Shown here piece by piece: positions 1 through 10,370 of a stretch of DNA of 10,370 nucleotides. Every line of letters starts with the position of its first letter. The stretch's first letter is position 1. Origin of the DNA: an uncultured Chryseolinea sp. (GTDB lineage: Bacteria; Bacteroidota; Bacteroidia; Cytophagales; Cyclobacteriaceae); contig CAMLER010000121.1 in the NCBI GenBank assembly GCA_946478915.1, positions 1 through 10,370 of the forward strand. The letters run 5' to 3'. The notes under the pieces are model-generated. The model searched no databases and was not told where the DNA came from. It worked only from the letters and a program-made list of their open reading frames with translations. Made by a program: the position numbers and the translations under genes.

Positions 1-1057
1 AAATGATGCAAACAGTTTCAAAGAATGGATACTCGATGCGAATGGTGGTAATGTACCATCGGCAAATGTTAATACGATCCTTTCTTCAGATTATCCATCC
101 GTTACAGGGAATCCAACCAATTCTGTATTCAAAGTGAAGCCAGCAATTTTGGATGTCATTGGTGCGTTTGAAGCCCTTCGGGTGAAATCATTGGAAAATC
201 AAAATCGAAATTTGGGTCCAAAAGTGGGGAATCGTCTTTATATTTTTATGTCTGGACATGGTATTGCACCAACACCATACGGGAATAAAATAGAAAAAGA
301 GTCCGGCTTACTGATGTCCAACGTTGAGCCCACAAATATTGCGGCGCCGCATTTTCATCTGCCTGGCGCGTATGCAGCAACCTGGTTCTGCGAGAACGAA
401 TTGTTTGAAGAAGTTTTTCTTTTCATGGACTGTTGCCGGGACCTGACTATTGTTCCAGGATTAAATATTTTCCTGCCTCCGAAGGGAAACGCGGATAAAG
501 CAAAGCGTTTTTACGCATTTGCAACACGGTGGTCGAGACGGGCGCGGGAGCGAACAATCAACGGAAAGGTTCAGGGAGTTTTTACCAAAACTCTCTTGAT
601 GGGCTTATATGGTGCTGCCGCAGAACCTGATCCCAACGATTCATCAAATGGCGTGATTACCGGAGCTTCATTGAAAAGTTATCTGTATCAGAACATGAAA
701 GAATTCATACACCCTGACTATAGAAACGATCCGGAGTTGCAAGAACCTGACGTTGATTATTTCCCTAAAGCAAATGAAGGCCGGGACATTGTAATCAAGA
801 AAGTTCCTATTCGAAGATTCCCCGTAAAACTAAAAGTTCCGAAAACTGCCAAAGGTGATCTCATCATTTTATACAACGGTCAAACACAGGTGCAAAAAAT
901 ATCCATAAATGCAGCGCCGACTGAATTCGATATTCAATTGCCTCGAGGAAAATATTTAGCAATTGCAAATATCGATAACACGGCGAAACCAACTTTATTC
1001 GATGTTAGAGGGATTGAAGAAACTGCGAGTGAAGCACTGGTTGACCTCACAGTTTAA
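1..1057 (+). CDS. Caspase-family cysteine peptidase (C14-like), 5' partial
   Basis: The reading frame is open from base 2 to the TAA at 1055-1057 (351 visible residues), so the start lies before the window. The internal GTG at 134 is not a credible start because caspase-like sequence precedes it (DANSFKEWILDANGG). The catalytic His is in YIFMSGHG (His codon 257-259). The catalytic Cys is in FLFMDCCRD, most likely the second Cys (434-436), which aligns with the DSCHSG type of metacaspases. The roughly 59-residue spacing fits the fold. After the peptidase domain, from about base 800, comes a short beta-rich stretch (PVKLKVPKTAKGDLIILYNG, then QLPRGKYLAIANI) resembling PEGA or carrier beta-sandwich domains. 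Members of this family hydrolyse proteins after basic or acidic residues; the specificity here cannot be read. It is first in a likely operon with an adaptor-like protein, a serine protease and a membrane protein, which suggests a regulated proteolytic effector. Family call strong; role inferred. Confidence 0.88.
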   Translation, partial: NDANSFKEWILDANGGNVPSANVNTILSSDYPSVTGNPTNSVFKVKPAILDVIGAFEALRVKSLENQNRNLGPKVGNRLYIFMSGHGIAPTPYGNKIEKESGLLMSNVEPTNIAAPHFHLPGAYAATWFCENELFEEVFLFMDCCRDLTIVPGLNIFLPPKGNADKAKRFYAFATRWSRRARERTINGKVQGVFTKTLLMGLYGAAAEPDPNDSSNGVITGASLKSYLYQNMKEFIHPDYRNDPELQEPDVDYFPKANEGRDIVIKKVPIRRFPVKLKVPKTAKGDLIILYNGQTQVQKISINAAPTEFDIQLPRGKYLAIANIDNTAKPTLFDVRGIEETASEALVDLTV

Positions 1058-1077
1058 TTTTTTTGAATGTGGTAACT

Positions 1078-2493
1078 ATGGAAACAAAACAAGTAGAAAC
1101 CTATAATCTTTCGGTAGAAACCAGCGACGAAGGCGCTGAAATTTTCATTCTCAATAGTCAGTTTCAACGCGTTGCTTCAGATACTGGAAAATCAGCAGTC
1201 TTTAAATTGAAGGAGGGTTTATATACCATCAAAGTTGCAGCGGGTTGTGAAACCATTGAAAAATCCATTGCTTTATTATCTAAAGATGAGACCGTAGTGT
1301 TCAATCCGGTAGCATTCCCTTCACCAGCTCCCCTCGAAGAGACTAGTCGCACTCATGAAGATCATATTAAAAATGCGGTTGATCACAGCCATCATGTACA
1401 TATACAAATTGGACATGGAAGTCAGATTTACGTATTCGCACGCGTCTGGACAAAGACTTTTCCATCTGGACTAAATCCTCACATCGAAGATCCTTCAACC
1501 GGGCTGACATTGAGAGATGTGGCGGATCAAATTCTCGTTGACTTCGGCCGACCCGAGATAGGATTTAACTCCGCTACAAGTGATCCATGGTCAGCCTGCA
1601 ATGTGGAACTAAATCCCGGAGTATATATCTTATGCCTTGAAACAAAAGGTAAAACTTTTAAACAAGTTATCGCCGCGTCTCCTTCGTGGCAGACACAAGT
1701 ATTCTTATTGAAAAGTGACCGCGCCAACTCTGAGGATTTTGAGTGTGATGCAGGTCTATCAAACGCCTCCATTTTTATGGCGGAATTAGGAACTGGGTTC
1801 AGGTCTTCAAGAAAAGAAAATCTGTCCTCCGATCCCGATTTCCGCCTCACGGAAATCGCCAGACAAGCTTTAATATCCAATCGTCCCGTGCTACGACAAG
1901 ATCTGCTATATCAAATGTTAGACGACAAGTTCAAAAATCCAATGCTAGGTATCTATGGATGTCATTTACTGTTGTTGAACAAGAAAACAGATAAGTCAAT
2001 GCTTCCTCGAATAATATCCAATCTCAGGAGGTTAGTAATAGATCCTCATCCTGAGATTGAGGCCTTGGCGGTAAAGCTTGATATGGATACGTCTTATGTT
2101 TTTAATGTGCCCCCAATGCTTCGGCAAAGTTGGAACTACATTCTTGAGGCCTCCGTAAGAAAAACTGACTTGATTCCCGAAAATTCCTTGACATCACGAA
2201 TTGCTGGGAATCTTTGGAGTGGAAATCAATGGCTGGTATGGGGTGGCAGCTCCTTTAACACCGATGATTATCTGAAAGACCAACTCAGGAATTTATCAGC
2301 CTTCAATATCTTCCTCCCTGAAGATGTTTCAAGTAGGTCATTCGATACAACTTTAAACTTCGACATGGGAAATCATATACCCGCATCCCTAGAGCTAGAC
2401 GAAGAAAAAATGAAACTCATGGTTCAAGCGTTAGGCGTTCCACGATCCAAACTTGATGCCGCAATTCATAGTATAAAAAGCAACATCAAATAA
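1078..2493 (+). CDS. Beta-sandwich plus helical-domain protein associated with caspase operon, function unknown
   Basis: ATG at 1078 gives 471 residues. TTG 1063 and GTG 1069 are in-frame alternatives only a few codons longer, and no Shine-Dalgarno separates them. Residues about 6-76 form a PEGA-like beta domain (FKLKEGLYTIKVAAG). A Pro/His-rich linker follows (HEDHIKNAVDHSHHVH), then a second beta-rich domain at about 108-215 (VELNPGVYILCLETKGK). The segment at about 245-385 is mostly helical (RQALISNRPVLRQDLLYQML; NPMLGIYGCHLLLL; VPPMLRQSWNYILEASVR). The C-terminus is a short helical motif (MKLMVQALGVPRSKLDAAI). There is no signal peptide and no membrane segment. I recall similar helical regions in proteins beside bacterial caspase genes, but cannot verify this. 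It starts 20 bases after the caspase stop, so the two are probably cotranscribed. An adaptor, sensor or substrate role is inference; no enzymatic motif is visible. Confidence 0.8.
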   Translation: METKQVETYNLSVETSDEGAEIFILNSQFQRVASDTGKSAVFKLKEGLYTIKVAAGCETIEKSIALLSKDETVVFNPVAFPSPAPLEETSRTHEDHIKNAVDHSHHVHIQIGHGSQIYVFARVWTKTFPSGLNPHIEDPSTGLTLRDVADQILVDFGRPEIGFNSATSDPWSACNVELNPGVYILCLETKGKTFKQVIAASPSWQTQVFLLKSDRANSEDFECDAGLSNASIFMAELGTGFRSSRKENLSSDPDFRLTEIARQALISNRPVLRQDLLYQMLDDKFKNPMLGIYGCHLLLLNKKTDKSMLPRIISNLRRLVIDPHPEIEALAVKLDMDTSYVFNVPPMLRQSWNYILEASVRKTDLIPENSLTSRIAGNLWSGNQWLVWGGSSFNTDDYLKDQLRNLSAFNIFLPEDVSSRSFDTTLNFDMGNHIPASLELDEEKMKLMVQALGVPRSKLDAAIHSIKSNIK

Positions 2494-2559
2494 TATCGGG
2501 CCTAAGATTTGTTCAACTACGCAAAACTCCCTCAATATCACCCCCAAAAATTTTCATTT

Positions 2560-3678
2560 ATGTTAACCGAAAAAGATCTTGAATCAATCCCTCACGAGGA
2601 ACTCCTCGCAGAATTAAAATCAAGGCAACTAAAAGGAGGCAAAGCAGAGAAAGACTTGGCCAACTCATCAGGTGTCAGGACATCAACTAATCCTCTCTCA
2701 GATGTTCCTGAAATGAAACTTTTTGAAAAGGCAATGGAAAGGCAGAAAGTCATTTATGGAGTCGATGATAGACGAGAAATTAAAGAACTGTTAGATGGAA
2801 TGATCAAGAATAATGCTGATAGTGTTGTTGGAATTTTTGACTTCGATCAGATTGTCCCTAACGGAGATGGGACATCGCGACTCGTCTTACGTTCCTATCA
2901 GGAATCATTTCGCCTTTGCTCAAATGAGTTATTTTCTCGTCAACCTGTTGGTCCTAGTTGTACCGGTTTTTTGATTGCACCTGACTTAATAGCCACGGCT
3001 GGCCATTGTATTGACGGCAGCAATTTTCTGACAAAACGTTTTGTTTTCGGCTTTGAAATAATCAATGGCGACGTTGCAAAAACAACCATCTCCGATAGTG
3101 ATATCTTCGAGGCAACGGCAATAGTGGATCATAGACTAGAGACAGCCGGATCAGACTATGCAATAGTAAAACTTGACCGACCCGTCGCAGGGCACAACAT
3201 AGTCACATTAAACAGCAGACAAAAAATCCGGGATAATGAGAGGCTATATGTTATTGGACATCCTTCCGGACTACCAAAAAAATTTGCCGATGGTGCCGTT
3301 GTAAGAGACAACACGCCTTCAACTCATTTTGTGTCGAATTTAGATACCTATGGTGGAAACTCAGGCTCACCGGTTTTCAACGCGAATACCCATGAGGTGG
3401 AGGGTATTTTAGTACGGGGAGAAAACGATTTTGTACTGGTTAACGGATGTGCACGTTCCCAGGTTTGTCCCACGACTGGCTGTCGAGGTGAAGACGTAAC
3501 ACGCGTCAGCGAGTTTATTAATAAAATTCCTAAAGGTAATGGCGTAGATTCTTTAGATGACCGGATGGTCATACTGGAGAGGACAATGCAATCTTTCAAA
3601 ATTGATCTTGCTGAGATTAAGAATCTGTTAAAGAAGCCAACCAAAAAACAACCAGCTGGAAATAAATACAAAAAGTGA
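2560..3678 (+). CDS. Trypsin/V8-like serine protease (S1 chymotrypsin fold), no signal peptide
   Basis: I chose ATG 2560 (372 residues). A TTG at 2509 would add 17 residues that look non-coding (FNYAKLPQYHPQKFSF). The triad is complete: His149 in ATAGHCID, Asp199 in GSDYAIVKLDRP and Ser268 in YGGNSGSPVF. Cys pair SCTG/AGHC matches the C42-C58 disulfide of chymotrypsin-like proteases, and a C-terminal cluster (NGCARSQVCPTTGCRGED) supplies three more cysteines. Residues 1 to about 95 form a charged helical pro-region (IPHEELLAELKSRQL). The last 50 residues are a predicted coiled coil with a basic tail (MVILERTMQSFKIDLAEIKN). No signal peptide is seen with either start, so it is either cytosolic or exported by another route. 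It lies 66 bases after the beta-sandwich gene and 63 before a membrane-protein gene. It may act in a cascade with the upstream caspase, with the N-terminal region as a regulatory prodomain; that is inference. Confidence 0.9.
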   Translation: MLTEKDLESIPHEELLAELKSRQLKGGKAEKDLANSSGVRTSTNPLSDVPEMKLFEKAMERQKVIYGVDDRREIKELLDGMIKNNADSVVGIFDFDQIVPNGDGTSRLVLRSYQESFRLCSNELFSRQPVGPSCTGFLIAPDLIATAGHCIDGSNFLTKRFVFGFEIINGDVAKTTISDSDIFEATAIVDHRLETAGSDYAIVKLDRPVAGHNIVTLNSRQKIRDNERLYVIGHPSGLPKKFADGAVVRDNTPSTHFVSNLDTYGGNSGSPVFNANTHEVEGILVRGENDFVLVNGCARSQVCPTTGCRGEDVTRVSEFINKIPKGNGVDSLDDRMVILERTMQSFKIDLAEIKNLLKKPTKKQPAGNKYKK

Positions 3679-3741
3679 GGAATAACAGTCAGGCTACCTG
3701 TAGAACTCATTAATGTCCTTTCACAACTTAACCAATCTGCC

Positions 3742-4206
3742 ATGAATAATGATGATTCGCCAAATCAAAAGTACATCTTTGCTATTGCTTGTTTCGTAAT
3801 TTACGTTGTTGTAATTGTAGTATTAGCTATGAATGTGGAAGCGGAGGAAACAACGTGGGGGCGATACACATATCTGTTTCAAGGAATTGAAGCCATCGTT
3901 TTGGCGGCTGTAGGGTGGATTTTCGGCAAGGAAGTCCACCGGCAGCAGGCCAAAAATGCGGAGACCCGAGCAGATGCTGCACAGAAAGAAGCAGCCGCAA
4001 AGGAAAGTGAGTTAGCTAAGGTCAAGACAAACCTTTCTAACCTTAGATCATATATTAAGTCACATGCCCCAATGGATAATGGAATGCCAGAGACCGTCAC
4101 AGGTATGACTGAGTCTGACAAGTCAAACGCAACCAATACCGTGGAACAATCTGCAATGGGAAAATGGTCGGAGCTTATTAAATTCTCTGATAGCCTAGAT
4201 TTCTAA
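3742..4206 (+). CDS. Small two-TM membrane protein with cytoplasmic coiled coil
   Basis: 154 residues. TM1 is about residues 11-30 (YIFAIACFVIYVVVIVVLAM). A short polar loop follows (NVEAEETTWGRYTYLF), then TM2 at about 45-62 (GIEAIVLAAVGWIFGKEVHR). An Ala/Lys/Glu-rich coiled coil (about 65-110) and a low-complexity acidic tail complete it. The positive-inside rule places both ends in the cytoplasm. The TM2 exit motif FGKEVHRQQA looks conserved from memory in membrane proteins near protease-type conflict genes, which I cannot check. ATG 3742 is the only standard start in this frame downstream of the protease stop. The frame is open for 21 codons upstream, straight back to the TGA of the protease gene at 3676-3678. 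It is probably the last gene of the operon. An anchor or pore-related role for the cassette is plausible but unproven. Confidence 0.72.
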   Translation: MNNDDSPNQKYIFAIACFVIYVVVIVVLAMNVEAEETTWGRYTYLFQGIEAIVLAAVGWIFGKEVHRQQAKNAETRADAAQKEAAAKESELAKVKTNLSNLRSYIKSHAPMDNGMPETVTGMTESDKSNATNTVEQSAMGKWSELIKFSDSLDF

Positions 4207-4786: not shown

Positions 4787-7151
4787 ATGATAAAACTTAT
4801 ACTCACCTTTCTGATCACGCTTATTGCTATAGTCCAGGGGCTGTGCCAAAACGGTTCATTCTCAGGCCGAATCGTGGACAAACGCACTGGCGAACCGCTT
4901 GTTGGAGCGACTGTGCAACTGGAGGGAACATCGCTTGGGACCACCACCGATACTGACGGGACTTATACACTTACCGACGTTCCGCCCAAGTCCTACAATG
5001 TCAAAAGCTTCGTTCGTCGGATATCAGGGATTAACCGAGTTTAACGTTGTTGTTCGCTCGGAAGGGAATATTGACGTTAACTTTGAGTTGATCGAGACCA
5101 CGGAACAATTAGAGGACGTCGTCATTACAGCAAACCCGTTTTTAAAGGTCGAAGAAACACCGCTTTCCATTCAAAAGCTTAGCCAGGAAGAAGTCGCTGC
5201 CTATCCGGGTGGGAACAACGACATTGCAAAAGTAGTGCAATCATTACCGGGGGTATCTGGCTCGGTGGGCGGCTTCCGAAATGATGTTATCATTCGCGGT
5301 GGGGCGCCAAGTGAAAATGTCTACTATCTCGATGGTATAGAAATTCCTAACATCAATCACTTTTCTACACAGGGTAGTGCCGGAGGGCCTGTTGGTTTGT
5401 TAAACGTTTCGTTTTTTGAGGGCGTGACATTGACCACCAGTTCCTTCGGCGCACAATATGATAATGTTTTGTCCGGTGTACTTCAATTCGATCAACGGAA
5501 TGGTAACGAACGAAAATTCCAGGGTAACATTCGTGTCGGCGCAAGTGAAACCGCCCTGACAGTTGAAGGCCCATTGTTTAAAGGATCAAACGAGAAAAGC
5601 AAAACGAGCTTTATTGCCTCGGCAAGGAGGTCATATTTACAATTTTTATTCGACTTGATCGGTTTACCCATTTTACCTGACTATTGGGATTTCCAGTACA
5701 AGCTTAAACACGACATTAACGAATACAATCAGCTTACCCTGCTCGGCCTTGCTTCTATCGATGACTTCAAAATTAACGAACTGGAGGAATTCGATGCGGA
5801 GCAGCAGGCGATTCAGGATCAGGTACCGATCATCAAGCAACGAACCAACACCATTGGATTATCCTGGAAAAAAAGGTTCCGCGACAACTCAGGATTTATG
5901 ACAACAAGCATAAGCAACAATTTCCTGGAAAATGATTTCTCACAGTTCAGAGACAATATCAATCAATCGGGCCTTTACTTTGAGAACGACTCACAAGAGC
6001 AGGAGACAAAATTGCGATATGCGCTAACAAAATTCGTGGGGTTATGGACTACCACAGCAGGTACATCGATCCAGGTAGCAAATTACAAAAACAATACGTC
6101 GAACCTTGTCAACAATTTCAGCTACAATACCGAATTGAATTTCATCAGATACGGGGTGTTTGTCCAGGCATCACGTAAGTTCGCCAACGATCGTTTTGGA
6201 TTATCGTTAGGTGTCCGCACTGACGGGAACACATTCACGACGACCGGGAACGAAGTGCAAAAAACATTGAGTCCGAGACTGGCGATTTCTTATCGACTTG
6301 ATCAGAAAGAAAAATGGACTGCAAATGCTTCCGTTGGACGATACTATAAATTACCTGCATATACGGTTCTTGGCTTCGCTGACAATACCGGCGTCCGCAT
6401 CAACAAGAATGCATCATATATTCAAACCGACCATCTAGTAGCAGGCATCGAATACCTTCTCACTGAGTCGTCACGAATCTCAGTTGAGGGTTTTGCAAAG
6501 ATTTACAACGACTACCCTGTATCAATCATCGACAATGTCTCGCTGGCAAACAAAGGCGGTGGCTTTGAAGTGGTAGGGAACGAGCCTGTTCGCTTTGACG
6601 GTAGAGGTAGAACCAGGGGAATCGAGTTACTGTACCAGCAGAAGTTCAACGGGAAACTCTACGCCATCGCGGCTTTTACATTTTATCGTAGTGAGTTCAC
6701 AAATGGTGACAAAGATAATTATTTACCTTCTACATGGGATAACGGTCAATTGGTGTCGTTAACTGCCGGCTATAAGTTCGCTCGGAATTGGGAAATCAGT
6801 TCAAGATTCCGGTTCCTTGGACGAGCTCCATATGCACCTGTCAATGAAGATGAAACTCTGGCTAACTATCCGGCTATTGTACGCGACTACACGAGGCTTG
6901 GGGAAGATCGGCTGGATAGTTTTCAACAACTTGACTTTCGTGTTGACAAGAAGTGGAACTTCAAACGCTTTAGCCTCGACCTCTATTTTGATATACAGAA
7001 CATCCTGTTTTCACAGACACCGTCAGAGCCAGCTTATGGGCTTGACCGCAATCAGGAAGGTGAAATTGTCGAGCCACGGAACCTCGTGATTGTTAACACA
7101 AATGAGACCGATGCAGCACTTCCCTCAATTGGTGTTGTCATCAACTTTTAG
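4787..7151 (+). CDS. TonB-dependent outer-membrane receptor, interrupted by a frameshift near 5003-5006
   Basis: ATG 4787 opens a signal peptide (MIKLILTFLITLIAIVQG) and a carboxypeptidase-like regulatory domain (GRIVDKRTGEPLVGATVQLE; DTDGTYTLTDVPPKSYNVK). This frame then goes off-sense and stops at 5044. The domain continues in another frame as ASFVGYQGLTEFNVVV. Removing one A from the AAAA run at 5003-5006 restores a protein of 787 residues ending at the TAG of 7149-7151. The plug domain spans about 108-230 (LEDVVITANP; DVIIRGGAPSENVYYLDG; GVLQFDQRNG). The remainder is a 22-strand-type barrel ending in the usual aromatic residue (IGVVINF). Such receptors import siderophores, cobalamin, glycans or other large ligands using TonB-ExbBD energy; the substrate cannot be read here. 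No SusD-like partner follows, so it is not a SusCD pair. The ATG at 4899 in the downstream frame is not a real start. It is either a sequencing error or a recent pseudogene. Confidence 0.9.
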
Positions 7152-7272: not shown

Positions 7273-7626
7273 CTAACCAGTTTTCCTGCTCTTCATTTCT
7301 GCCTGACGCATGGGCATGCTATCAATCAATTGAAAAATCGTTTTAATTTCGACAGGTTTAGAGGATCTCAACTTTTCGCCCCCGTCCTTTCCAATAAGTA
7401 ACAAGGTAAATTGATTGGAAATCACATTATACTTTTTATACTCCGATTCCTTTTCAACAATAATTATCACAAGATCTCTTTCAGCAATACCGCTGCTATC
7501 TTGATGGAGTAAAGTAAGTTGCTTTTTGAATTCAGGTTGAGCTTCTCCAAAAACTAACAAGCGGCGTGTGGATGACTGTACATGCATTTGAAGGGAGAGG
7601 AATAGTGACAATAAGAGAAGATACAT
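7273..7626 (-). CDS. DUF4174 domain protein with signal peptide
   Basis: 117 residues from the ATG at 7624-7626 (minus strand) to the TAG at 7273-7275. Residues 1 to about 18 are a hydrophobic signal peptide (MYLLLLSLFLSLQMHVQS), so the product is probably periplasmic or exported. The mature part carries the hallmarks I know from DUF4174: RRLLVFGEA near the start, a central ERDLVIIIVE strand (49-58), the LLLIGKDGGEKLRSSKPV motif (75-92) and the terminal IDSMPMRQAEM (101-111). The family is short and of unknown function, with a suspected thioredoxin-like fold but no CxxC here. It is convergent with the TonB receptor and divergent from the lipoprotein gene, so it is probably monocistronic, with its own terminator at 7203-7223. 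Confidence 0.88.
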   Translation of the reverse strand: MYLLLLSLFLSLQMHVQSSTRRLLVFGEAQPEFKKQLTLLHQDSSGIAERDLVIIIVEKESEYKKYNVISNQFTLLLIGKDGGEKLRSSKPVEIKTIFQLIDSMPMRQAEMKSRKTG

Positions 7627-7880: not shown

Positions 7881-8600
7881 ATGTTTGTTCAAAAAGCTAT
7901 TAGCGTTGTCACTATCATTATGCTGATAATGCTTTTGAACAGTTGCTCGAATGATGCGCCAGTACCAATAGTTGAGGAAAAGATTGACCCGTTGAAGGGC
8001 TTGCCAGATGAAGGTCCAGTGCGTTTCGATAACCTGATAATAGGACAACGAAGTTACTACATCTATTTTCGGGCTTTTAATAAGACCGACACCGAAGACA
8101 TTCGCTTTGAATATAAGACTGATACGCTGGTAATAGCAGTCACGGGCAAGGAATCCGACAGATGGATCTTAAAAGAATTTATTACAGAAGGTTCCACTTT
8201 TTTTTCGTCCGATACTGTATTTACGCTTTCATTACGGTTTGAATCGGATGTTGCTTTATTTGCAGAACCATCCGATGGGAGTTATTACTCCAATTTTTTT
8301 GCCATTCGAAACGGTGAAAGTATTGGGTTTCCGATGATATTGATAGCCGAACCATCAAAGGAAAATCCTACCTGTTCTCCCTTTGCCAGCATTAATTCGA
8401 ATGAGATGGAATTTGCACGCAACTATACTCAATTTGGTCAGAACTTTGAACACGTGAATATTTATCAGGACTATACCGCGACTGCAACGGATGGACCTGG
8501 ACTGATGTATGTCTACTCTCCTGCTGACGGGTTTGTACGAATGACCGTCTTCAATCCTTGGGTATACGACCAAGTAACCGGATGGGATCTCATCCCATGA
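7881..8600 (+). CDS. Lipoprotein of unknown function
   Basis: 239 residues from ATG 7881 to TGA 8598-8600. The N-terminus has a short basic start, a hydrophobic core (AISVVTIIMLIMLL) and the lipobox LNSC with Cys22, as expected for signal peptidase II processing and lipid anchoring. The mature part begins SNDAPVPIVEEKIDPLKGLP and is rich in beta-prone, aromatic segments (RFDNLIIGQRSYYIYFRAF; TDTLVIAVTGKESDRWILK). It has a single further Cys (NPTCSPF). I recognise no family motif, and such small lipoproteins are common and fast-evolving in Bacteroidota. No SD-like sequence precedes the start. The gene stands alone: it is divergent from DUF4174 and followed by a long gap. Confidence 0.85.
   Translation: MFVQKAISVVTIIMLIMLLNSCSNDAPVPIVEEKIDPLKGLPDEGPVRFDNLIIGQRSYYIYFRAFNKTDTEDIRFEYKTDTLVIAVTGKESDRWILKEFITEGSTFFSSDTVFTLSLRFESDVALFAEPSDGSYYSNFFAIRNGESIGFPMILIAEPSKENPTCSPFASINSNEMEFARNYTQFGQNFEHVNIYQDYTATATDGPGLMYVYSPADGFVRMTVFNPWVYDQVTGWDLIP
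8582..8598. repeat. Perfect 7-bp inverted repeat at the lipoprotein gene end
   Basis: ATGGGAT (8582-8588), loop CTC and ATCCCAT (8592-8598) overlap the last codons and the first base of the TGA stop. There is no T-tract after it, so it is not a standard intrinsic terminator. It may stabilise the 3' end of the message, or it may be chance. Confidence 0.45.
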
Positions 8601-9043: not shown

Positions 9044-10370
9044 ATGAAAAAAATATCATCAACTTTTATATTCTTCACAGGAAAAGGCGGCGTAGGAAAA
9101 ACTTCTCTCGCCTGTGCAACCGCTGTTAAGTATGCTGACAAGGGAAAAAAAGTTCTTTTAGTCAGCACGGATCCCGCTTCCAACTTGGAAGACGTATTAC
9201 AAAGTCCGGTAAAAAATGAAATAACACCTCATAACATTATAGGTAATCTTTTCGCCATCAATATCAATCCTGAAGTTTCAGCGCAGGAATACAGAGATAG
9301 AGCAACTGCTCCACTTAAAGGTATAGCTTCTCCAGATGAAATAAACAAAGTAGTAGAGCAACTCTCCGGAGCATGTACCACTGAGATAGCTTCATTTGAT
9401 GAATTCTCACGTTTCATAACAGGCGAAGGTAGTTTACAAGATTTTGATGCAATCATTTTTGATACCGCCCCTACCGGTCACACTATTCGTTTGCTGGAGT
9501 TGCCTGCTGCGTGGGATACCTTTCTCGACAACAATCCCAAGGGTGCGTCCTGCATCGGTCCGTCTACTGCTCTAAAAAGTAGTAAGGATCGATATAAAAA
9601 GGTCGTCAAGAGTTTAAGGGATCCAAAGCAAACAACTTTCTTTTTGGTAGCTCGTCCTGAAACTTCATCCTTAAAGGAAGCTGCGCGTACTAGTTTGGAA
9701 CTGAAAGAACTAGGAATGTCAAATCAAGAACTATTGATAAATGGAGTATTCAAAGCAATGGATCGTAGTGACCCCATAGCTTTGGAAATCGAGAAAATGT
9801 CTGAAGAACATTTAGCGAGTTTACCCGCCGAGCTGCAAAGTCTGGAAAAATCAGAATATCCAACGTTACCATATAATGTTCTAGGTGTAGAAAAATTAAG
9901 ATCATTGTTAGATCGCAACCTTCAACTCAAACTCATAAAAGAAGAGATTGCAATCGGTACTGAATTGGTGCGTCCTCTTGACGACTTATCCAAATTGATA
10001 GATGATCTGGAAGGGAGTTCCAATAGTGGTTTAATTATGACAATGGGCAAAGGCGGTGTAGGTAAAACTATTATAGCCGCATCTATTGCAACTATTTTGG
10101 CGAAACGGGGGCACCAGGTACTGTTAACCACTACAGATCCGGCAGCGCACATCAATGATTTCATGAACCAATTAGATAAAATTCCAGACGGTCTGGTGAT
10201 CGAACGGATTGATCCCAAGGTTGAAACTAAGAAATATATAGATAAGATAGTCGAACAAAAGGGTTCCAAACTGGATGATGAAGGAAAGAAGTTATTAATC
10301 GAAGACCTGAAATCGCCGTGCTCAGAAGAAGTGGCGGTCTTTCATGCCTTCTCCAATGCGATCTTCAAAG
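9044..10370 (+). CDS. arsA: Arsenite/antimonite-pump ATPase ArsA, 3' partial
   Basis: ATG 9044 follows an in-frame TAA directly (TAAATG) in A-rich DNA. 442 codons are visible and the gene runs off the right edge; ArsA is usually near 580 residues. ArsA is the soluble ATPase that powers the ArsB membrane pump in efflux of As(III)/Sb(III). The first half has P-loop GKGGVGKTS (13-21), STDPASNLED and the DTAPTGHT switch (140-147). A second P-loop, GKGGVGKT (335-342), starts the second half, followed by TTTDPAAH. The three metalloid-binding cysteines of the E. coli plasmid protein (113, 172, 422) have counterparts: Cys111 in QLSGACTTEI, Cys170 in KGASCIGPS and Cys426 in LKSPCSEEVAVF. This favours a true arsenical ATPase over a Get3-like paralogue. 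arsB or acr3 may lie beyond the edge; arsD and arsR are not seen upstream. Confidence 0.95.
   Translation, partial: MKKISSTFIFFTGKGGVGKTSLACATAVKYADKGKKVLLVSTDPASNLEDVLQSPVKNEITPHNIIGNLFAININPEVSAQEYRDRATAPLKGIASPDEINKVVEQLSGACTTEIASFDEFSRFITGEGSLQDFDAIIFDTAPTGHTIRLLELPAAWDTFLDNNPKGASCIGPSTALKSSKDRYKKVVKSLRDPKQTTFFLVARPETSSLKEAARTSLELKELGMSNQELLINGVFKAMDRSDPIALEIEKMSEEHLASLPAELQSLEKSEYPTLPYNVLGVEKLRSLLDRNLQLKLIKEEIAIGTELVRPLDDLSKLIDDLEGSSNSGLIMTMGKGGVGKTIIAASIATILAKRGHQVLLTTTDPAAHINDFMNQLDKIPDGLVIERIDPKVETKKYIDKIVEQKGSKLDDEGKKLLIEDLKSPCSEEVAVFHAFSNAIFK

What the first reader, a model, noticed from the sequence alone, without database searches (positions are those of the whole stretch)
1..4206. 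Four-gene cassette pairing a caspase with a trypsin-like protease, an adaptor-like protein and a membrane protein
Directly seen: two proteases of unrelated clans, each with intact catalytic residues, flank a beta-sandwich/helical protein and are followed by a two-TM coiled-coil protein, all on one strand with gaps of 20, 66 and 63 bases. Known: bacterial caspases and trypsin-like peptidases are effectors in predicted conflict systems that also carry adaptor and membrane components (work of Kaur, Burroughs, Iyer and Aravind). Inferred: the cassette could be a two-step proteolytic switch in which a trigger activates one protease, which then matures the other, ending in membrane-linked damage or dormancy. 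No NTPase sensor is visible; one may lie left of the window.
Basis: partly seen in the sequence, partly recalled or inferred. Interest (0 to 1): 0.75.

Follow-up and report, generated by a model that had tools for sequence, protein, structure and literature searches.

The report
Caspase–partner module with swappable hydrolases
Two neighbouring genes in this bacterial fragment, a caspase-like protease and a so far unnamed partner protein, are found side by side in many distant bacteria together with an exchangeable set of destructive enzymes, which suggests a modular self-destruct or anti-virus switch of which the trypsin seen here may be one optional part.

Summary
All four genes are there, with gaps of 20, 66 and 63 bases, but the caspase is cut by the window's left edge and the four are not a conserved cassette. 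What is conserved is a pair: caspase (2-1057) and gene 2 (1078-2493). Gene 2 belongs to a family without a Pfam name (two beta-sandwiches, a helical domain, a short tail). In 35 of 35 counted loci (33 without copies), from 7 other phyla by record titles, a caspase lies directly 5' of gene 2 or is fused to it; two weak matches left out of the count have none. Around the pair the enzymes swap: beside it, usually upstream, a zinc metallopeptidase (17 of 33) or an alpha/beta-hydrolase (11), never both; trypsin domains, often with NucA, in 6. So the window's trypsin is a plausible optional partner, and the missing left-hand gene is probably a metallopeptidase. Gene 4 is a rare orphan, linked by position only. 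Best mechanism: the triggered caspase-gene 2 complex cuts after Lys/Arg and switches on stored hydrolases; the trypsin family keeps a basic residue at a possible activation site, but the V8-like reading of that site is weak. Closest by logic: Canu. A defence role is inferred, not shown.

The parts
2..1057 (+). gene 1, caspase-fold protease, 5' end cut off by the window; the part after about residue 270 looks like a small beta domain by sequence only
   Evidence: ORF; caspase family by A3; His86 (257-259) and Cys145 (434-436) in 25 of 25 rows; proposed S1-pocket acids Asp2 (5-7) and Asp143 (428-430) in 25 of 25 rows
1078..2493 (+). gene 2, unnamed partner family: N-terminal prealbumin-like beta-sandwich (residues 1-80), second beta-sandwich (about 115-236), helical domain (about 255-400), linker, C-terminal two-helix tail (442-470)
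   Evidence: searches (94 proteins, the window's own included; no Pfam family shared by the 37 members scanned), AF2 model, fold comparison; next to a caspase in 35 of 35 counted loci
1795..2301 (+). helical domain of gene 2 (residues 240-408), no confident match among solved structures
2560..3678 (+). gene 3, trypsin/V8-like serine protease; His149 (3004-3006), Asp199 (3154-3156), Ser268 (3361-3363)
   Evidence: PF13365 and PF00089; family alignment A4; best solved sequence by profile glutamyl endopeptidase 1p3c
2560..2748 (+). proposed propeptide of gene 3 (63 residues) ending at Lys63; proposed cleavage Lys63|Val64
   Evidence: inference; of the 120 listed homologues 105 fit the pattern and 101 of these have Lys or Arg at that place; the piece around the junction did not align to 1p3c
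3742..4206 (+). gene 4, small protein with two hydrophobic stretches and a coiled-coil-like tail; membership uncertain
   Evidence: 4 proteins at E <= 0.01 among 20 candidates; link by position only

Best explanation
Genes 1 and 2 are the constant core of a modular bacterial system: a caspase held and probably triggered by gene 2, which acts as sensor-adaptor and platform. When triggered, the caspase cleaves after Lys/Arg and switches on stored hydrolases encoded next to it. The hydrolases differ from genome to genome: zinc metallopeptidase or alpha/beta-hydrolase, trypsin-NucA, trypsin-PLD, or subtilisin. In this window the visible partner is a trypsin/V8-like protease that could be matured by a cut at Lys63|Val64; a metallopeptidase gene probably lies just left of the window. 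The outcome is most likely growth arrest or death of a cell under attack by phage or plasmid. Shown: the pair's conservation, the swapping of partners, the fusions, and intact catalytic residues. Inferred: complex formation, order and site of cleavage, trigger, and role in defence.
For: Pair: caspase directly 5' of or fused to gene 2 in 35 of 35 counted loci, two of them copies of others. Of 7 plasmid records found by searching with the caspase alone, 7 carry gene 2 next to it. Distances on quick trees of the two proteins correlate, r 0.81 over 33 rows, 0 of 1000 permutations as high. 18 of 94 gene 2 proteins are fused to a caspase. Partners in 33 loci: metallopeptidase 17, alpha/beta-hydrolase 11, subtilisin only 1, none of these 4; metallopeptidase and alpha/beta-hydrolase never together. 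Zinc motif in 18 of 18 metallopeptidase ORFs, GHSxG in 10 of 11 hydrolases. Trypsin domains in 6 of 33 (L014, L018, L035, L037, L040, L050; Pfam for five, L035 by its near-identity to L018), two of them fused to gene 2. The caspase keeps both acids that make the metacaspase S1 pocket accept basic residues, 25 of 25 rows (PMC4357240 and PMC6426788, passages read). The L018/L035 trypsin has a Lys-Arg|Val-Val-Gly-Gly site and GDSGG. L015 joins gene 2 to TIR and CHAT. L036 lies near a PADLOC candidate defence pair PDC-M01A/B (9 chosen proteins were tested). Patchy: 13 of 1474 sampled genomes, 5 of the 13 being the seeds and 2 weak (only the best few candidates per genome were scored). Gene 3-type trypsins elsewhere also lie near a clan CD peptidase: a C25 relative within 7 kb in 3 of 3 plasmid records (clan membership recalled).
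Against: The gene 3 family is mostly independent: 7434 of 7996 scored candidates are homologues; among the 120 listed, only the window's own shares a contig length with the gene 2 list (a weak test); no caspase of this type in any of four neighbourhoods of gene 3 relatives (L054, L055, L058, L059); the family was found in 1 of 150, 0 of 171 and 1 of 169 sampled genomes. No locus but the window has a gene 3-type trypsin beside gene 2; the trypsins of the other loci are of other subfamilies, and a basic activation site is clear only in L018/L035, which are near-identical. The V8 reading of Lys63|Val64 is loose: 85 residues from Val64 to the catalytic His against about 46 in 1p3c (its mature start is recalled), the piece around the junction aligned to 1p3c only near GHC, and in 11 of the 15 listed homologues outside the pattern the next residue is Gly or Ala (by eye). 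No cleavage, toxicity or phage data exist. Two weak gene 2 matches (L043, L046) have no caspase in the about 3 kb held for each. The odds were lowered from 0.55 on recheck because and the Gly/Ala cases.
Confidence: 0.5

Rival explanations
1. Only genes 1 and 2, plus a missing upstream hydrolase, form the system; the trypsin and the small membrane protein are unrelated neighbours or a separate transcript. (Shares the core with the best explanation.)
For: Gene 3 relatives were seen without gene 2; gene 4 is a rare orphan; gaps of 66 and 63 bases are wider than the overlaps or short gaps usual between caspase and gene 2 (coordinates).
Against: Trypsin domains recur beside or fused to gene 2 in 6 of 33 other loci; same strand, short gaps, and no terminator-like site on the + strand between 2400 and 4900 (a consensus scan only).
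Confidence: 0.3
2. It is a Canu-type defence system in which gene 2 is the counterpart of CanB and an as yet unseen pro-nuclease is the caspase's target.
For: Canu pairs a caspase with a co-purifying partner CanB and a proteolytically opened nuclease (PMC12799240, section 8 read); gene 2 has beta-sandwich and helical parts, and the paper mentions Ig-like and TPR folds in canu loci in general.
Against: No HxHxDH motif of the metallo-beta-lactamase kind in an ORF of credible size in 33 loci and the window (a motif scan of the DNA held); no nuclease gene in the window; homology of gene 2 and CanB was not tested.
Confidence: 0.15
3. The order is reversed: the trypsin-like protease is triggered first and matures the caspase, with gene 2 as inhibitor.
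For: Either protease could in principle cut the other; trypsin-gated nucleases are known in Hachiman and AVAST (PMC12799240, passages).
Against: The caspase-gene 2 pair is constant and the trypsin optional, so the constant part is more likely the initiator.
Confidence: 0.1
4. A housekeeping, developmental or surface-proteolysis module unrelated to conflict.
For: The N-terminal beta-sandwich weakly resembles the C-terminal domain of gingipain and other surface-protein domains; no direct defence test.
Against: Sparse, multi-phylum distribution, plasmid copies, and fusions to TIR-CHAT and NucA are typical of conflict systems; genes 2 and 3 start without an obvious signal peptide (by eye).
Confidence: 0.15

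Closest known systems
Canu (CanABC) caspase-nuclease defence system (PMC12799240; passages and section 8 read)
   Same: Caspase beside a partner protein that may hold and modulate it; caspase switches on a stored hydrolase; loci vary
   Different: No MBL-fold pro-nuclease seen here; partners are metallopeptidase, alpha/beta-hydrolase, trypsin, NucA, PLD or subtilisin; relation of gene 2 to CanB untested
NucA-trypsin conflict system, 'System 3' of Kaur et al. 2020 (PMC7159879, section 32 read)
   Same: Trypsin-NucA genes stand beside or are fused to gene 2 in L014, L018, L035, L040 and L050; a subtilisin in L038 and L050
   Different: Section 32 mentions no caspase or gene 2-like core; the window has no NucA
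Caspase plus alpha/beta-hydrolase pairing in VMAP ternary systems (PMC7159879, passages read)
   Same: Caspase with neighbouring alpha/beta-hydrolase, as in 11 of 33 relatives
   Different: Here gene 2 is constant and the hydrolase is replaced by a zinc metallopeptidase in 17 of 33; MoxR, vWA and VMAP were not searched for in the relatives
EACC1-caspase two-gene system (PMC7159879, passages read)
   Same: Constant caspase with variable effectors
   Different: Its constant partner is a single-TM protein 5' of the caspase; gene 2 is a large protein without an obvious TM stretch (by eye), 3' of the caspase

Membership tests
Caspase family C14 / prokaryotic orthocaspase | Caspase fold domain with His-Cys dyad | tested here: met
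   20 of 25 rows match PF00656, the cut window row not; metacaspases best by profile; His and Cys in 25 of 25 rows
Caspase family C14 / prokaryotic orthocaspase | Acidic S1 pocket for Arg/Lys (Asp95 and Asp211 of TbMCA2) | tested here: met
   Asp at both positions in 25 of 25 rows; the first is aligned to MCA2, the second I placed by the DxC motif; specificity itself not assayed
Canu | MBL-fold pro-nuclease gene downstream of the caspase | tested here: not met
   none downstream in the window; no credible HxHxDH ORF in 33 relatives (motif scan); the window's left side is unseen
Canu | CanB homologue | not tested
   no CanB sequence at hand: the word accession does not occur in the main text and supplements could not be opened
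Canu | Caspase with C-terminal Ig-like domain | tested here: inconclusive
   a C-terminal segment runs through alignment A3 but was not modelled
NucA-trypsin System 3 | NucA endonuclease with trypsin | tested here: not met
   the window's genes lack Endonuclease_NS; both are found in relatives L014, L018, L040, L050
VMAP ternary system | MoxR ATPase, vWA protein and VMAP | tested here: inconclusive
   none among the window's genes, left flank unseen; not searched for in the relatives
EACC1-caspase system | EACC1 gene directly 5' of the caspase gene | tested here: inconclusive
   window cut there; in 29 of 33 relatives a metallopeptidase, alpha/beta-hydrolase or subtilisin gene lies beside the pair, mostly directly upstream
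V8-like glutamyl endopeptidase | Zymogen whose mature N-terminal Val completes the S1 pocket | tested here: inconclusive
   Lys63 then V-I-Y-G-V-D-D-R and best PDB hit 1p3c by profile, but spacing to His differs and the junction piece did not align to 1p3c; no assay

The most novel reading that the evidence does not exclude
A so far undescribed modular immune platform in about 8 bacterial phyla: one caspase-adaptor core that acts as initiator for an interchangeable set of zymogens (zinc peptidases, lipases, trypsin coupled to nuclease or phospholipase), that is, a true bacterial initiator-to-executioner protease cascade, with the gene 2 helical domain and tail as a new kind of effector-docking platform.
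Probability: 0.35. Interest if true: 0.82.

Novelty: new variant of a known kind. Interest (0 to 1): 0.62.

Why it matters
Canu showed that a bacterial caspase can switch on a stored nuclease. If this module works as proposed, the same logic extends to lipases, zinc peptidases and a second protease, around one constant caspase-partner core shared by distant phyla. That would give natural experiments on how a caspase recognises and releases different executioners, and would give a role to a protein family for which Pfam and PADLOC gave no name here.
Full report
What is in the window. Four same-strand genes lie at 2-1057 (5' end cut), 1078-2493, 2560-3678 and 3742-4206, with gaps of 20, 66 and 63 bases. 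Further right are a TonB-dependent receptor, a DUF4174 protein and an ArsA ATPase. That the organism is a Bacteroidota is my inference from these and from the nearest named gene 2 homologues; no genome is held for the window.

Gene 1. The cut sequence alone matches no Pfam family, but its relatives do: of 25 aligned rows (window plus 24 loci) 20 match PF00656, their profile finds solved metacaspases and, weakly, MALT1, and the His-Cys dyad is in 25 of 25. Two acids that in TbMCA2 help bind basic residues (PMC4357240 and PMC6426788, passages read) are also in 25 of 25; the first is aligned to MCA2, the second I placed by the DxC motif.

The pair is the conserved unit. A pattern scan of the genome collection gave 21 loci; plasmid searches with gene 2 gave 5 records and with the caspase 7; genome sampling added others. 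In 35 of 35 counted loci a caspase lies directly 5' of gene 2 or is fused to it, including the two plasmid records found by the caspase only. Two weak gene 2 matches left out of that count have no caspase in the stretch held. Distances on quick trees of the two proteins correlate (r 0.81, 0 of 1000 permutations; 32 loci plus the window, L021 left out). 18 of 94 proteins are single caspase-gene 2 chains. By record titles the loci span Acidobacteria, Chloroflexi (Anaerolineae), Abditibacterium, Planctomycetes, Proteobacteria, a Desulfobacteraceae bacterium and Polyangium (partial match); with the Bacteroidota homologues that is about 8 phyla by my reading of the titles.

The partners swap. In 33 non-redundant loci the partner is a zinc metallopeptidase in 17, an alpha/beta-hydrolase in 11, a subtilisin alone in 1, and none of these in 4 (one of these, L010, starts about 1 kb before its caspase); metallopeptidase and alpha/beta-hydrolase never occur together in the DNA held. 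Caveats: in L012 the metallopeptidase is on the other strand and on the other side, in L020 the match is weaker and 0.4 kb away, in L048 it is fused to the end of gene 2, and L050 has a subtilisin too. In L016 the metallopeptidase is fused to a GDSL lipase (L017 has the same length and match), in L049 to a phosphoesterase of family PF04185. Trypsin domains occur in 6 of 33: with NucA in L014, L018, L035, L040 and L050, with PLD and a second trypsin in L037; in L050 on the opposite strand, in L014 half a kb away. NACHT-type NTPases lie directly downstream in L005 and L051; L015 joins gene 2 to TIR and CHAT domains, with AAA, NB-ARC and TPR matches below Pfam's cut-offs. On the gene 2 tree the metallopeptidase/hydrolase label changes at least 3 times (1 to 2 if only well-supported branches count), and the window falls with four metallopeptidase loci (support 97), so I predict a metallopeptidase gene to its left.

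The trypsin. Gene 3 belongs to a large, well-conserved family (7434 of 7996 scored candidates; alignment) that I saw mostly elsewhere. Three plasmid records hold it; in all three a C25 (gingipain-type) peptidase lies within 7 kb, directly downstream in two, while 7 of the 10 plasmid records with that C25 type are not in the trypsin list. None of four neighbourhoods read has this caspase type. Of the 120 listed homologues 105 fit the pattern residue-[VIL][IVLF]Y..[DN][DNS]R and 101 of these have Lys or Arg before it (3 Glu, 1 Gln). In the 15 others the printed N-termini show Lys or Arg at the matching place, by eye, but in 11 of these the next residue is Gly or Ala. In V8-like enzymes the free N-terminal Val completes the substrate pocket only after the propeptide is cut off (PMC5508998, passages). 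A caspase cut at Lys63|Val64 is therefore a concrete, testable activation step, but the spacing to the catalytic His differs from 1p3c, the junction piece did not align to 1p3c, and only two near-identical relatives (L018, L035) show a comparable basic site.

Gene 4 has four detectable homologues, one a 99% copy; its role is open.

Comparison with what is known. Canu (PMC12799240: passages and section 8 read) is the closest in logic: caspase plus co-purifying partner, activating a stored nuclease. The module here lacks that nuclease as far as a motif scan shows, and whether gene 2 is related to CanB could not be tested. Kaur et al. 2020 (PMC7159879: section 32 and passages) describe NucA-trypsin systems and caspase plus alpha/beta-hydrolase pairs; I saw no caspase-gene 2 core or metallopeptidase/hydrolase swap in what I read, which is not the whole text or the supplements. 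Kaur et al. 2021 (PMC8195603) was read in passages only. The listings showed no paper on such a family.

Verdict. The finding is real but wrongly bounded: a conserved caspase-partner core with an interchangeable set of hydrolases, of which the window shows one likely example. Defence is the most likely role (sparse distribution, plasmid copies, fusions to immune-type domains, one locus near a candidate defence pair), not a demonstrated one.

Noticed in passing
window 4787-7151: The TonB-dependent receptor gene is split over two reading frames near position 5000 (ORFs 4787-5044 and 4899-7151), a sequencing error or a broken gene.
   Followed up: no
window 7273-7626 (-), 7881-8600 (+), 9044-10369 (+): A DUF4174 protein, a lipoprotein-like protein without a family (by eye), and an ArsA ATPase cut by the window end.
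   Followed up: no
L054, L055: Relatives of the window's trypsin on Rhizobium and Bradyrhizobium plasmids lie near C25 gingipain-type peptidases, with radical SAM and ferritin-like genes or an AbiE-type pair nearby.
   Followed up: partly
L036 12413-15016: A candidate defence pair (PADLOC PDC-M01A/B) about 4 kb from a fused caspase-gene 2 protein on a Sinorhizobium plasmid.
   Followed up: partly
L015 9500-14917: Single ORF joining the gene 2 domain to TIR and CHAT domains, with weaker AAA/NB-ARC and TPR matches.
   Followed up: partly
L001 11639-12616, L002 11566-12513: A similar gene of about 320 residues without a Pfam family directly downstream of gene 2 in two Acidobacteria loci.
   Followed up: no
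P0071: A gene 2 homologue followed in the same chain by what look like two LexA-like units (source Pfam list; sequence).
   Followed up: no
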